DNA of 64,000 bases. Source: an uncultured Nitrospira sp. (GTDB lineage Bacteria > Nitrospirota > Nitrospiria > Nitrospirales > Nitrospiraceae). Made by a program: the position numbers and the translations under genes. The notes below the pieces were generated by a model. It ran no database searches. It was given only the letters and a program-made list of their open reading frames with translations, and was not told the origin of the DNA. Of this stretch, positions 60,072-63,988 are shown piece after piece (within the stretch, counting starts at the first letter, position 1; each line of letters starts with the position of its first letter). The DNA is taken from the NCBI GenBank assembly GCA_902500775.1, contig CABVRZ010000025.1, positions 1 through 64,000 on the forward strand, in the 5' to 3' direction.

Positions 60072-60149
60072 GTCCCCATCGTCTAGCCTGGCCTAGGACA
60101 TTGCCCTTTCAAGGCAGTAACACGGGTTCAAATCCCGTTGGGGACACCA
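60072..60149 (+). tRNA. tRNA-Glu (TTC)
   Basis: Acceptor GTCCCCA/TGGGGAC, anticodon arm TGCCCTTTCAAGGCA with anticodon TTC, T-arm ACGGGTTCAAATCCCGT and encoded CCA at 60147-60149. It is the insertion target of the adjacent island. Confidence 0.95.
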
Positions 60150-60436
60150 AACCTTTCAATGCACGCTAACCCATTGAAAAATCCATTCACTGCAGCTTCT
60201 CTCTCAAACGAATAACGCTTCTCTCCGTCTCTCCTCATCATCGCTGTAGCCGAAAAGCTCTCTTCTTCAGCGAGGAAGTTCTCACTCATGGCATGGCTCC
60301 TCTGTTGTGCACCCTCTGCTGGCCTATCTCATGGACGCAGACCACGGGCGTCAGGTGTGGTGTGAGACACAGTTGTCAGGGTGATCGGCATCGCCCCTGT
60401 CCTCCACAGGTCCTCGGTGAGGAAGAGAAAGACCCC

Positions 60437-60515
60437 GCGACCGGTGAGGTGCCGGTCGCAGGCGCGAGGGGATTAGCCCCGCGCTTGGGTCTCCACGTCA
60501 CAAGCAAGGACGTGG
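60437..60515. other. Cluster of three strong hairpins
   Basis: GCGACCGG (60437-60444)/CCGGTCGC (60452-60459); GCGC..GGGG (60462-60471)/CCCCGCGC (60477-60484); CCACGTC (60493-60499)/GACGTGG (60509-60515). Each stem is 7-8 bp, tightly packed. It could be a structured leader RNA or recombination site; no family recognised. Confidence 0.4.
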
Positions 60516-60542
60516 GGCTATCGTATGCTGGGGGCGGAGGGG

Positions 60543-60800
60543 ATGTACATATGTGCTGAGTGCAAGGAAAGCGGAACACACAGGCTGGGCATGATGGTCA
60601 GGCAAGCTCACAGAATACAAGAGTCGCTGTCTAATGGTACCAAGCGAGGTCCTCAGTCAACTCCTGAAAGGGCTGGACCGCCGGAGGAGTTCTTGGTCTG
60701 GGTCCGAGTGATCTTGGCAGGAAAACAACGGGCTACGTATTGCGGGATGATCCAACACTACTTTCGACGAGCGTCAACGACCGCTGCAAAGCGAGATTGA
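60543..60800 (+). CDS. Possible small ORF or gene remnant, 85 aa
   Basis: Starts MYICAECKESGTH after GGCGGAGGGG (spacing too short to be ideal) and includes GPPEEFLVWVRVILAGKQR and a basic end. A CxxC pair is present near the start. Overlaps the end of the convergent membrane gene by 43 bases. May be a real small protein, or a decayed one; an overlapping 88-codon frame at 60293-60559 is less convincing. Confidence 0.3.
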   Translation: MYICAECKESGTHRLGMMVRQAHRIQESLSNGTKRGPQSTPERAGPPEEFLVWVRVILAGKQRATYCGMIQHYFRRASTTAAKRD

Positions 60801-61951
60801 TCCTCTATTCTTCTAATATGTAGGCCAACCGCATAGCTATCTCCGTTTGTATGTTCTTCGCCATCAGGGGAGGAGGCATGGACTGATGTGCCAGTAATCG
60901 TAATGTCTTCAAGAGTCAAGCATATCTGTTGGTTCTTAGAGAAGGTCATGGTCTCGAGGGAATGAGTAACATAGGCTCCACTTCCATTTTCAGAGATCTG
61001 GACTACCCTACCAACTCCTGATCCCGACTCCCAGGCAATACGGCAAACTAGTTCGTTAAGCAAACGGTGGCGCGCTACCCTTTGCTTCTTGCTCTGCGTC
61101 TCTTCATTGACCCGTGTCCCTTTTTTCCGGAGAAACTCTTTATACTGATTTATGTGCTGCTCAGCACCACCAAACCCATATAGACGTATTAGACCAGTAG
61201 CGATGATGTGGGGCTTGTAAATTTGGCTACTTCCATCAACATCTTGATTAAGAGTTAGAAGATCAGAATCTTTGTGATGTGTGTGTCGGTGATGTTTATA
61301 AAAACTAACCAGCATATTCTCAGTATATTTAACCACGAGAAGGTAAGCACAACCATCAATAATTGGGCCCGTGGACTGGTAGAAATGTTTATATATTGGG
61401 GCCAGCATGCTAGGAACAAGGTAATACAGGAGCTTACCAAGATCTGTCAGAGTTCTCCTTCGAACGCTAGTACCCGATGTTGATTCACCAGTGATGTATT
61501 CTATGGGCAACGCCTCTTGTTGTTTACGAACATAATGATAAGTCCTCCTGGTGAGAAGAAAATGTCCTACGACCGTAATCAGTATCAAACCAAGCAGGTG
61601 AATCTCTCCCAAACCTGGTGCGTCTTCGTGGTAAACATAATTATAGAACTTCTTTGCCAAAGGGATTCCCCCTAGCTGGATTGTGCAGATGAGAAGGGTA
61701 GACACTGCGCACGAGGCGAGGACCCAAACAAAAACCCACCACGCATGGCGTCGGATGCTTGGCCACCCTCCAAGGGAATCTGGGTTTCTAAGAAACCGAA
61801 GCCAAGGGACTTCTGTAAGTGAATATCTTGCAGATAAGGCGGAACAAATCGAAGACAGCGCAGTACACGCCATTATAATAACATAGTCACTCCAAACTAT
61901 ACTTATAAATGGAAAGACTGGCTGATCTAGAAATGGCAAGGGATCGGTCAA
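60758..61951 (-). CDS. Multi-TM membrane protein with possible C-terminal PilZ-like domain
   Basis: 397 aa. Several hydrophobic helices in the first half (VWSDYVIIMACTALSSIC, WWVFVWVLASCAVSTLLICTI, IHLLGLILITVVGHFLL), then a basic soluble region. Its C-terminal 110 residues run RHRLLNELVCRIAWESGSG, VVQISENGSGAYV and SYAVGLHIRRI: an xxSxxG-like motif between beta strands recalls PilZ. Not certain. Overlaps the upstream winged-helix gene by four bases. Confidence 0.6.
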   Translation of the reverse strand: MTDPLPFLDQPVFPFISIVWSDYVIIMACTALSSICSALSARYSLTEVPWLRFLRNPDSLGGWPSIRRHAWWVFVWVLASCAVSTLLICTIQLGGIPLAKKFYNYVYHEDAPGLGEIHLLGLILITVVGHFLLTRRTYHYVRKQQEALPIEYITGESTSGTSVRRRTLTDLGKLLYYLVPSMLAPIYKHFYQSTGPIIDGCAYLLVVKYTENMLVSFYKHHRHTHHKDSDLLTLNQDVDGSSQIYKPHIIATGLIRLYGFGGAEQHINQYKEFLRKKGTRVNEETQSKKQRVARHRLLNELVCRIAWESGSGVGRVVQISENGSGAYVTHSLETMTFSKNQQICLTLEDITITGTSVHASSPDGEEHTNGDSYAVGLHIRRIEDQSRFAAVVDARRK

Positions 61952-62271
61952 AAGCAGCTAACCTTCTTAGGCACTAGTGCAAATACTGTATACTCCCATC
62001 GGTCCTGGCTTCGGCCAGCCCTTCTGAATTGACCAGCTGATATTCGCCCTTCCCGTTGAAGTCGCTCTAGAACTTCGTCCAAGTCTTGCTCGGGAACACC
62101 TGTGAGCAAACGTAGATTGGAATAGGATTGGGCACCCTCTCTCCATAGGGTGTAGATGACCTTTTGTTCTATTGTTTGAATTCGTCGTGGGAAATATAAC
62201 TCAAGCTCTATATCGTTGGGGAAAGCCCGAGATCGTTGAGGTCCAATACATTGTTCTTCTTCGGCTATCAT
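61948..62271 (-). CDS. Small winged-helix-like protein, 107 aa
   Basis: The middle reads RIQTIEQKVIYTLWREGAQSYSNLRLLTGVPEQDLDEVLERLQREGRI, a winged-helix pattern. Likely a DNA-binding or protein-interaction regulator of the membrane gene it overlaps (ATGA). Island gene; no closer family assigned. Confidence 0.6.
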   Translation of the reverse strand: MIAEEEQCIGPQRSRAFPNDIELELYFPRRIQTIEQKVIYTLWREGAQSYSNLRLLTGVPEQDLDEVLERLQREGRISAGQFRRAGRSQDRWEYTVFALVPKKVSCF

Positions 62272-62631
62272 GCGTCACCTCTGCATTACTGGTCTACCAT
62301 GTAGATAATGTTCTAACGCAGCGTAAGAAAGTGCAGAACAACTGCTTGACTACGTGACCTGCAACTGAATTCATTTGAAGCTAAGAGAAGATTTTAGGGG
62401 GACAGTATCAACCTCCCCCCTTAATCCTACTTATAGTAGATCGTACCAAACCTGGCAACAGGAATCCGGCATTCCGTGATGGCGTAAGCGGCCCTATCTA
62501 CTAGGTACATATGCACCTACTCCTGGAATTGGTTCCGTGGTCAGCCATTGCGCGCTCAACCAGAATTATCATTCCCCTGGGGTATCAGTGCAATCTCTGC
62601 TAATATCGTCGCACTAGCCAATTGGGATTAG
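62272..62631. other. Divergent intergenic region of the island
   Basis: 360 bases between the two divergent island pairs. Contains AGGGGG at 62396-62401 with CCTCCCCCCTT at about 62422-62432 forming a hairpin, possibly a terminator. No gene is visible; it should hold both promoters. Confidence 0.5.
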
Positions 62632-63141
62632 ATGGGGGTGAAGATGACGACCAAATTTCATATCAAAATGGGGTTGGTAGAGGTTGATTATGACGGTAGC
62701 GAAGAATTCCTAAAAGCGGAATTGCCTGCCCTACTCACCGCCGTATCGGATCTTTACAAACAAAGTGGACTCCACAACGAGAGGGAGCGCTTGAACAATG
62801 TCGGAGAAGCTTCGGAGGAAGATGAGCTCGACAATGGATCAGGACTAAAAATGTCCACTACTACAATTGCCGGAAAACTAAGTGTCCAGAGTGGCTCTGA
62901 TTTGACACTTGCAGCAGGGATCAAGCTGGGGGTCGTGCATGGCCAGGGAACCTTCACAAGAAAAGAAATATTGAAGGAAATGCAATCCGCTACAGGTTTT
63001 TACAAAGCCTCATATGGGGCGAACCTCTCAAAATCACTTTTAACACTCGTAAAGGACAAAAAGTTTAATGAACAGTCCAAAGGTGTTTATTCATTAGTTC
63101 CCAGTGCTAAAGCAGAGTTAAAAGCTAAACTTGCTAACTAG
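62632..63141 (+). CDS. Winged-helix-like partner protein of the HEPN gene
   Basis: 169 aa; ATG 62644 (after GGGGGTGAAG) may be the real start. The N-terminus TTKFHIKMGLVEVDYDGSEEFLKAEL is compact and acidic. The C-terminal 85 residues (FTRKEILKEMQSATGFYKASYG...LSKSLLTLVKDKKFNEQSKGVYSLV) look like a winged helix. It overlaps the HEPN gene by 11 bases, so translation is coupled. It could be an antitoxin-like or sensor partner; no family recognised. Confidence 0.6.
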   Translation: MGVKMTTKFHIKMGLVEVDYDGSEEFLKAELPALLTAVSDLYKQSGLHNERERLNNVGEASEEDELDNGSGLKMSTTTIAGKLSVQSGSDLTLAAGIKLGVVHGQGTFTRKEILKEMQSATGFYKASYGANLSKSLLTLVKDKKFNEQSKGVYSLVPSAKAELKAKLAN

Positions 63142-63868
63142 ACCTCACCTTAAAGACGCACTGCATCAGGCAGGCCTATCAAAGACAGACAGACTGTTAA
63201 TCTGCCTCCTGATAGACCCGCAACACCCAAAATCTGTAAGTGCCATTAAGGACCTTGCTCGTGCAGGCGGAATTCATAGTATTAAAACATGGAACATTTC
63301 TAGTCTTCTGAGCGCTTCCAAGGGGAAAGCCGTTCGTACCGGTGACGGTTGGGAGTTGACCCAACCTGGAATCGATCACGCGAGGAAACTAACAAGCCAT
63401 TTATCTAATACAGTTGCTCCTCTTCAAGCAGCGGTTAAGCTCAGAGATGCCTTGCACAAAATCGTCCATTTAGAAGCACGCAGTTTTGTAGAGGAAGCCG
63501 TTCTGTGCTTCGATTACAAACTTTACAGAGCAGCTGTAGTGCTTTCTTGGGTAGGTGCTGTGTCCATACTTTACCAGCATGTAGTCTCTAATAAGCTTCT
63601 AGAATTCAATACCGCAGCATCCGCTCGCTTTACAAAGTGGAAATCCGCAAAAACGTCAGATGATCTAGCTCTATTGAAGGAAACGGATTTCCTGCTGGTT
63701 CTCCAAGATATCTCCATTATTGGGAAGAGTGTAAGACAGGAACTGGAAAGTCGTCTGAAGCTAAGAAACGGCTGTGGTCATCCAAACTCTCTTGTCGTGG
63801 GAGAGCACACGGTGTCAGCACACATTGAAGTTCTTATAGACAATATTTTCTCAAAGTTCACAGCATAA
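63131..63868 (+). CDS. HEPN-like protein with N-terminal winged helix (candidate effector RNase)
   Basis: 245 aa, TTG start at 63131 overlapping the upstream gene. N-terminal winged-helix-like region (TDRLLICLLIDPQHPKSVSAIKDLARAG...ELTQPGIDHA), then an all-helical part (EAVLCFDYKLYRAAVVLSWVGAVSILY). Near the C-terminus LKLRNGCGHPNS carries R212-N-x-x-x-H217, the RNxxxH catalytic motif of HEPN ribonucleases. A toxin or anti-phage effector is likely from the architecture; the C-terminal motif could also be structural. Confidence 0.65.
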   Translation: MLTRPHLKDALHQAGLSKTDRLLICLLIDPQHPKSVSAIKDLARAGGIHSIKTWNISSLLSASKGKAVRTGDGWELTQPGIDHARKLTSHLSNTVAPLQAAVKLRDALHKIVHLEARSFVEEAVLCFDYKLYRAAVVLSWVGAVSILYQHVVSNKLLEFNTAASARFTKWKSAKTSDDLALLKETDFLLVLQDISIIGKSVRQELESRLKLRNGCGHPNSLVVGEHTVSAHIEVLIDNIFSKFTA

Positions 63869-63962
63869 TTGATTCTATGAATCTTCACAGAATTAGTTCA
63901 AGCCGCTATCCTCATTTCCCCTGTAAACGGAATGATCAGGCGGGCCACCGACGACATTGAAA

Positions 63963-63988
63963 GGTTCACATTCCGATTGGGGACACCA
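63963..63988 (+). repeat. Degenerate copy of the tRNA-Glu 3' end (putative att site)
   Basis: Reads GGTTCACATTCCGATTGGGG then ACACCA; the tRNA 3' end reads GGTTCAAATCCCGTTGGGG then ACACCA. The last 12 bases (TTGGGGACACCA) are identical, with three differences and one inserted base before. It cannot fold a tRNA T-arm, so it is not a tRNA gene. Marks the right end of the island. Confidence 0.65.

What the first reader, a model, noticed from the sequence alone, without database searches (positions are those of the whole stretch)
60758..62271. Second island pair: winged-helix-like protein overlapping a membrane protein with PilZ-like tail
A four-base overlap couples a small winged-helix-like gene to a multi-TM protein whose tail has an SxxG-type motif between strands. 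If PilZ-like, it might sense a cyclic dinucleotide; with the HEPN pair on the other strand this could form a sensor-effector defence system with a membrane arm.
Basis: inference. Interest (0 to 1): 0.5.

Follow-up and report, generated by a model that had tools for sequence, protein, structure and literature searches.

The report
Orphan regulator and membrane protein pair
Two coupled genes, a small DNA-binding-like protein and an unknown three-helix membrane protein, sit in a spot beside a tRNA gene where some related bacteria keep anti-virus systems; nothing found shows that they sense a signalling nucleotide or work with the neighbouring HEPN genes.

Summary
In detail: a wHTH-like gene (61948-62271, -) and a membrane gene (60758-61951, -) share a TTGA overlap; the protein has three hydrophobic helices, a long C-terminal part and an SxxG. 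The reading is only partly supported. The tail lacks both c-di-GMP motifs of PilZ (RxxxR, [DN]xSxxG), which 19 and 17 of 20 PilZ domains of the same genome carry; SxxG occurs three times in the tail and means little. Profile alignment to those domains is weak, end to end and slightly above controls: a degenerate PilZ-like barrel is possible, not shown. AlphaFold models without relatives failed. Relatives of the HEPN gene were found in seven other places, none beside a relative of this pair, so one joint system is not supported. No relative of the membrane protein was found. All four genes form a 3.8-kb, low-GC islet without integrase between a tRNA-Glu gene and a repeat of its 3' end. At this site relatives have almost nothing, or other cargo: CBASS genes, IetA, Panacea genes, serine recombinases. 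Best reading: cargo of a tRNA hotspot that can carry defence genes, a regulator plus a membrane effector or anchor of unknown family; function inferred from place only.

The parts
60072..60149 (+). tRNA-Glu(ttc), left boundary and integration target
   Evidence: ARAGORN; Rfam tRNA; conserved in relatives
60123..60149 (+). 3' end of tRNA-Glu, first copy of the att-like 27-nt repeat (70% identical to the second copy)
   Evidence: 12-nt core TTGGGGACACCA occurs twice in the 64-kb window (60138 and 63977), both strands counted, 0.008 expected with equal base frequencies
60758..61951 (-). 397-aa membrane protein of unknown family (TTG start)
   Evidence: no convincing family match; no relative
61832..61909 (-). 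predicted TM1 (residues 15-40)
   Evidence: hydropathy
61658..61744 (-). predicted TM2 (residues 70-98)
   Evidence: hydropathy
61550..61618 (-). predicted TM3 (residues 112-134)
   Evidence: hydropathy
60761..61099 (-). C-terminal tail (residues 285-397), possible degenerate PilZ-like domain
   Evidence: hhalign 14.67 against own-genome PilZ profile, 0 of 200 shuffles and 0 of 300 decoys reach it; RxxxR and [DN]xSxxG absent
61948..61951 (-). TTGA overlap of the two genes
61948..62271 (-). 107-aa winged-helix-like protein (core about residues 30-100)
62272..62631 (.). 360-bp divergent intergenic region between the two gene pairs
   Evidence: sequence; promoter-like sites of the region scanned not above shuffles
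62632..63141 (+). 169-aa partner of the HEPN gene (neighbouring module, not part of the pair)
   Evidence: relatives have a gene of similar size in the same place
63131..63868 (+). 245-aa HEPN-type protein with RNxxxH (R212-H217; neighbouring module)
   Evidence: alignment A1
63962..63988 (+). second copy of the tRNA-end repeat, right boundary of the islet; a third copy lies at contig 64850-64876, beyond the window

Best explanation
The pair is a small operon of a wHTH-like regulator and a three-TM membrane protein of no known family. It lies, together with a separate HEPN two-gene module, in an islet without integrase at the 3' end of a tRNA-Glu gene, a site that holds varied cargo, anti-phage genes included, in this genus. 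Most likely mechanism: the wHTH protein binds DNA and holds its own operon (perhaps also the divergent HEPN operon) low; when relieved, the membrane protein is made by coupled translation, sits N-out/C-in, and acts on the membrane, or is anchored there, through its about 260-residue cytosolic part. That part may end in a PilZ-derived barrel that no longer reads c-di-GMP and works as a protein-interaction domain. Shown: genes, overlap, composition, three hydrophobic stretches, a tRNA site with varied cargo, missing motifs, HEPN module elsewhere without the pair. Inferred: DNA binding, repression, topology, membrane effector role, any role against phage.
For: Genes and overlap; chance test for the long ORF; hydropathy and charges. 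Site: the distance from tRNA-Glu to the right-hand marker gene runs from 211 to 6289 bp in the 14 of 35 loci where the marker was found, 5083 bp here; repeats of the tRNA end bound the islet. Cargo at the same tRNA in relatives: CBASS cyclase (PADLOC 5.6e-95), 2TM effector (2.9e-61) and bSEFIR (1.4e-41) in G344, IetA (2e-81) in G051, Panacea protein in G011 and G007, serine recombinases in G019 and G058. wHTH. HEPN modules without the pair.
Against: The defence role rests on location alone. Of 19 cargo proteins that I chose by eye from 9 loci for PADLOC (10, 9), clear known-defence matches came from two loci, G344 and G051 (one more, L060, has a short DrmA match, E 7e-5); the 9 proteins gave no PADLOC match. 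No relative of the membrane protein means no conservation to show that it is maintained. No inverted repeat of 14 nt or more lies in the intergenic region and promoter-like sites are not above shuffles. The wHTH matches in Pfam and NCBIfam are all below curated cut-offs, and no wHTH relative was found in genome contigs, plasmids or the 78 other genomes of the genus.
Confidence: 0.45

Rival explanations
1. One reading: the tail is a working PilZ domain that senses c-di-GMP or another cyclic dinucleotide, and the four genes form one sensor-effector defence system with a membrane arm and a HEPN nuclease.
For: Both pairs share one islet and diverge from a common 360-bp region. Tail aligns end to end with own-genome PilZ domains, score just above controls. 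The genome has 30 PilZ hits. A relative's islet at the same tRNA holds CBASS genes. One weak wHTH relative (G216, L103) is followed by a PilZ protein.
Against: RxxxR and [DN]xSxxG absent, while 19 and 17 of 20 own-genome PilZ domains have them; no Pfam PilZ match. HEPN relatives at 7 other places, none with a convincing relative of the pair in the stretch fetched. Only 1 of 7 wHTH-relative loci has a PilZ neighbour (by eye; that one confirmed by Pfam).
Confidence: 0.06
2. Toxin-antitoxin-like pair: the membrane protein is a membrane-damaging toxin and the small wHTH protein is its repressor or antitoxin, kept as an addiction module on the islet.
For: Small upstream gene coupled to a membrane gene by a TTGA overlap; the same site holds Panacea (SocA-like antitoxin) genes beside a gene of 97-98 aa in G011 and G007.
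Against: 397 aa with a long cytosolic part is large for the known small membrane toxins (recalled); no match to a toxin or antitoxin family.
Confidence: 0.22
3. Element-maintenance or plain passenger genes: wHTH and membrane protein serve the mobile element (regulation, surface exclusion) or are ORFan cargo with no defence role.
For: No relatives of the membrane protein in what was searched; the islet lacks an integrase (by eye), so it may be a remnant; 9 of the 19 cargo proteins scanned, from other islets or recombinases at the site, have no PADLOC match at all.
Against: The 397-codon frame is intact and coupled, which argues against decay.
Confidence: 0.27

Closest known systems
PilZ domain (PF07238), as in YcgR, Alg44 and BcsA
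   Same: C-terminal soluble segment after membrane helices, as in BcsA (recalled); weak end-to-end profile alignment with own-genome PilZ domains, including S-E-N-G at the place of SxxG
   Different: No Pfam match; RxxxR and [DN]xSxxG missing; no other domain matched
CBASS membrane effectors (SLATT / 2TM), as held by G344 at the same tRNA
   Same: Membrane protein carried at the same integration site
   Different: No cyclase among the four islet proteins; no SLATT or PADLOC effector match; three hydrophobic helices rather than two
tRNA-located defence hotspots and islands with unclear mobility in E. coli (PLoS Genet 2023, PMC10121019; passages seen)
   Same: Variable cargo with defence genes beside a tRNA, bounded by conserved genes, in some cases without identifiable mobile elements
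   Different: Another organism, a small islet (3.8 kb), no integrase inside (by eye)
Small wHTH proteins: DUF5805, ORF80, and distantly the Z-alpha domain of ZBP1
   Same: Match over about residues 33-87, the helix-turn-helix core
   Different: Scores below family cut-offs or E 0.12 and weaker; the Z-alpha Asn and Tyr that contact Z-DNA (recalled) seem replaced, read by eye

Membership tests
PilZ c-di-GMP receptor | RxxxR motif in the N-terminal loop | tested here: not met
   No RxxxR in residues 281-397; present in 19 of 20 own-genome PilZ domains; definition from passages of PMC7288161
PilZ c-di-GMP receptor | DxSxxG motif (taken here as [DN]xSxxG; the N variant is recalled) | tested here: not met
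   Tail has QISENG; motif present in 17 of 20 own-genome PilZ domains; definition
PilZ c-di-GMP receptor | Match to the Pfam PilZ model | tested here: not met
   Not listed at E up to 10 for the full protein or the tail alone (HMMER filters on); the PilZ protein in L103 passes the cut-off
PilZ c-di-GMP receptor | PilZ beta-barrel fold | tested here: inconclusive
   AlphaFold without relatives failed (pLDDT 37.8 and 35.0). hhalign: 0 of 200 shuffles, 0 of 300 decoys reach the tail, but probability 2.3%. hmmsearch: 1 of 500 shuffles higher, second of the 854 scored among the tail and 1086 decoy segments
Joint HEPN / membrane sensor-effector system | The two pairs occur together | tested here: not met
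   0 of 7 other HEPN places show a convincing relative of the membrane pair in the 6-15 kb fetched; the converse is not testable
HEPN superfamily (neighbouring module) | RxxxxH-type motif (RNxxxH; recalled) | tested here: met
   RN-x-CGH invariant in the three aligned proteins; weak RiboL-PSP-HEPN match of relative L100 (E 0.16); no Pfam HEPN match for the window protein
CBASS | CD-NTase gene with effector | tested here: not met
   No cyclase match among the four islet proteins
tRNA-targeted integrative islet | Direct repeat of the tRNA 3' end bounding the insert, site nearly empty in relatives | tested here: met
tRNA-targeted integrative islet | Own integrase | tested here: not met
   No recombinase among the islet ORFs (by eye) and no Pfam recombinase match for its four named genes

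The most novel reading that the evidence does not exclude
A new two-gene anti-phage module: a membrane effector built from three helices plus a PilZ barrel that has lost c-di-GMP binding and been re-used to sense another ligand or a protein, under a dedicated wHTH regulator that also governs the divergent HEPN module.
Probability: 0.1. Interest if true: 0.65.

Novelty: new member of a known kind. Interest (0 to 1): 0.3.

Why it matters
The pair itself is an orphan, but the site is useful: one tRNA-Glu gene, in a genus with 79 genomes held, collects small islets with known anti-phage genes (CBASS in one relative, IetA in another) and unknown cargo. Comparing that single site between genomes is a cheap way to find untested defence candidates, among them the HEPN two-gene module, which recurs in two other genomes of the genus, in three other genera of the phylum and on an Ochrobactrum plasmid. 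If the membrane pair protects against phage, it would be a family that PADLOC-DB 2.0.0 does not hold.

Tried and rejected
Homologue searches for the membrane protein: 98 relatives, 295 genomes of the phylum, 175 of the family, plasmids, phages; the genome sets overlap. The scans of genome contigs and viral contigs start from exact 8-residue patterns and would find close relatives only. Besides the own genome, one search gave two matches at E 0.001-0.004 and thirteen at E up to 0.05 (best 18.6 bits, one shared). I looked at the two: L004 is the start of another membrane ORF, aligned over part of the helices; L005 is a transposase-like locus (by eye). All were taken as chance.

AlphaFold of the full protein and of the tail, single sequence: useless; no fold search was made on them.

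wHTH as Z-DNA binder: ZBP1 match E 0.12-0.17, rejected as generic winged-helix similarity. The 'Lysozyme' match (5i8l, E 1.1e-4) is the sum of three weak repeats, none significant alone; rejected.

Six of the ten HEPN matches (E 0.001 or worse) were dropped as chance; I opened one, L050, whose matched region lies in an acetyl-CoA-synthetase-like gene (by eye). That leaves own, G034, G029 and G013. A scan of viral contigs with the HEPN alignment found none.

Weak matches of the tail in 98 relatives at E up to 5: 31 besides itself, 29 with loci examined (the two others had no locus). Two of 29 lie in ORFs with a PilZ-profile score above 20 bits: in L127 the domain overlaps the match, in L116 it lies just before it. 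Three near-top matches (L112-L114) are copies of one other protein, and most of the rest are partial or in frames without a likely gene. Slight support at best.

One search gave seven weak wHTH-relative loci; six have no PilZ neighbour by eye within about 1.5 kb, so the one in L103 is not counted as an association.

Literature: searches 'PilZ/anti-phage/defence', 'integrative element/tRNA gene/defense island hotspot/Nitrospira', 'PilZ/HEPN', 'PD-T7-3/HEPN', 'defense systems/integration hotspot/tRNA/integrase/Nitrospirota' and 'PilZ domain/transmembrane/RxxxR/winged helix': among the titles listed I saw none on this pair or site. Passages only were seen of PMC9519451, PMC10121019 and PMC7288161. 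That the host is a Nitrospira was my guess; it was not tested.

Full report
What is there. The window is bases 1-64000 of a 65,658-bp contig of a 4.5-Mb genome. On the minus strand a 107-aa gene (61948-62271) and a 397-aa gene (60758-61951, TTG start) share four bases, TTGA. The long frame is beyond chance (0 of 500 simulations), the short one alone is not (208 of 500). Divergent from them, across 360 bp, lie a 169-aa gene and a 245-aa HEPN-type gene on the plus strand. All four have GC 0.44-0.47 and third-position GC 0.39-0.45, against 0.53-0.58 and 0.57-0.65 in three genes to the left.

The membrane protein. Hydropathy gives three helices (about 15-40, 70-98, 112-134); the charges (no K/R before helix 1, 5 in loop 1, 2 in loop 2, 7 in the 36 residues after helix 3) suggest N-out/C-in, with about 260 residues in the cytosol (inference). 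It has no convincing match in Pfam, NCBIfam, PADLOC or PHROGs and no relative in the searched genomes, plasmids, phages or viral contigs.

Is the tail PilZ? The genome has 30 PilZ hits. From 20 of them I built a profile. The tail scores 8.7 bits by hmmsearch; 1 of 500 shuffles is higher, and the full protein's best domain gets only 3.1 bits. It ranks second of the 854 segments that got a score, out of itself and 1086 decoy segments of 262 ORFs. By hhalign it scores 14.67 over 89 columns from end to end; none of 200 shuffles (best 14.53) and none of 300 sampled decoys (best 11.94) reaches it. The ligand motifs are absent: no RxxxR, and QISENG in place of [DN]xSxxG, while 19 and 17 of the 20 own-genome domains have them (motif roles from passages of PMC7288161). 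SxxG occurs three times in the tail. AlphaFold without relatives gave pLDDT 37.8 and 35.0. My estimate: about 40% that the fold is PilZ-like, under 10% that it binds c-di-GMP.

The small protein. Weak wHTH-type matches: DUF5805 4.5e-4 and ORF80 1.5e-4, both below cut-off, and ZBP1 Z-alpha 0.12. No relative in genome contigs, plasmids or the other 78 genomes of the genus. Among 395 genomes of the phylum, seven weak matches lie in four genomes of the same family (E 1e-4 to 0.008). One of these (G216, L103) is followed 160 bp on by a PilZ protein (Pfam 9.3e-5); the other six are not, judged by eye. That is a lead, not an association.

Does the pair travel with the HEPN pair? HEPN relatives were found in G034, G029 and G013 (79 genomes of the genus), in G203, G175 and G262, with a domain-only match in G327 (395 genomes of the phylum), and on Ochrobactrum plasmid pLM19O1. 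RNxxxH is invariant in the three proteins aligned. In the six cases other than G013 and G327 a gene of about 170-210 aa lies directly upstream, so the HEPN module looks like a two-gene unit; but the upstream genes match our 169-aa gene in place and size only: tblastn with it finds none of them, and the alignment of two of them with it is loose (28-29% identity). No convincing relative of the membrane or wHTH gene lies in the stretches fetched around the seven places: the best tblastn match of the wHTH protein is E 0.012 (21% over 42 residues, in L073), of the membrane protein E 0.11. In G013 the HEPN copy is decayed (stops inside), lies beside a transposase gene, and sits next to an RRM-protein gene like the one that lies at the right end of the site here; the contig end hides the rest. 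The two pairs are best seen as separate modules sharing an islet.

The site. The islet lies between tRNA-Glu (60072-60149) and a 27-nt imperfect repeat of the tRNA end at 63962-63988; a third copy at 64850-64876 closes a module with an RRM protein (Pfam RRM_1 7.1e-23). The 12-nt core occurs twice in the window, 0.008 expected. In 35 loci oriented on this tRNA (34 from relatives), the right-hand 127-aa marker was found in 14, at 211 to 6289 bp from the tRNA start: 211-231 bp in G018, G041 and G227, and 5083 bp here. The RRM gene is present in 10 of the 35. Cargo: G344 has TIR, CBASS cyclase, 2TM effector and SEFIR-cold-shock genes; G051 has IetA; G011 and G007 have Panacea proteins; G019 and G058 have serine recombinases next to the tRNA; G022 has a DUF6538 protein that I take by recall for a tyrosine recombinase. 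I listed cargo ORFs of 17 loci by eye and gave PADLOC 19 proteins from 9 of them; clear known-defence matches came from two loci. The G344 and G051 hits are strong; that the site is a defence hotspot is therefore indicated, not surveyed. Such tRNA hotspots are known: PMC10121019 places 18 of its 41 E. coli hotspots in tRNA loci (passages).

Conclusion. The most economical reading is a regulator plus membrane protein carried as a separate module on an islet without integrase at a tRNA-Glu site. Its action on the membrane and any role against phage are inferences from place.

Noticed in passing
L057:2468-7055 (G344, same tRNA-Glu site): Islet at the same tRNA holds a TIR protein, a CBASS cyclase, a 2TM SLATT-like effector and a SEFIR plus cold-shock-domain protein.
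   Followed up: partly
L064:1371-2552 (G051, same tRNA-Glu site): IetA-type AAA ATPase (PADLOC 2e-81) next to the tRNA on a 3.1-kb contig.
   Followed up: partly
window 62632-63868: Two-gene HEPN module; HEPN relatives with an upstream gene of similar size in G034, G029, G203, G175, G262 and Ochrobactrum plasmid pLM19O1, decayed in G013; weak PD-T7-3 (PADLOC) similarity of the window protein (E 0.015) and of three of five relatives scanned (E 0.0012-0.0062).
   Followed up: partly
L002:6291-6877 (contig 64291-64877): RRM RNA-binding protein gene (Pfam) between the second and third copies of the tRNA-end repeat; present in 9 of 34 relative loci on this tRNA.
   Followed up: partly
L103:258-1026 (G216:C21): Distant wHTH relative followed 160 bp downstream by a stand-alone PilZ protein.
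   Followed up: partly
L076, L067 and L068 beside tRNA-Glu: Serine recombinases in G019 and G058, and a DUF6538 protein in G022, lie directly at the tRNA 3' end: likely drivers of insertion at this site.
   Followed up: partly
window 60382-60553: Block between tRNA and islet genes, conserved at 74-85% in several relatives; no Rfam match.
   Followed up: no
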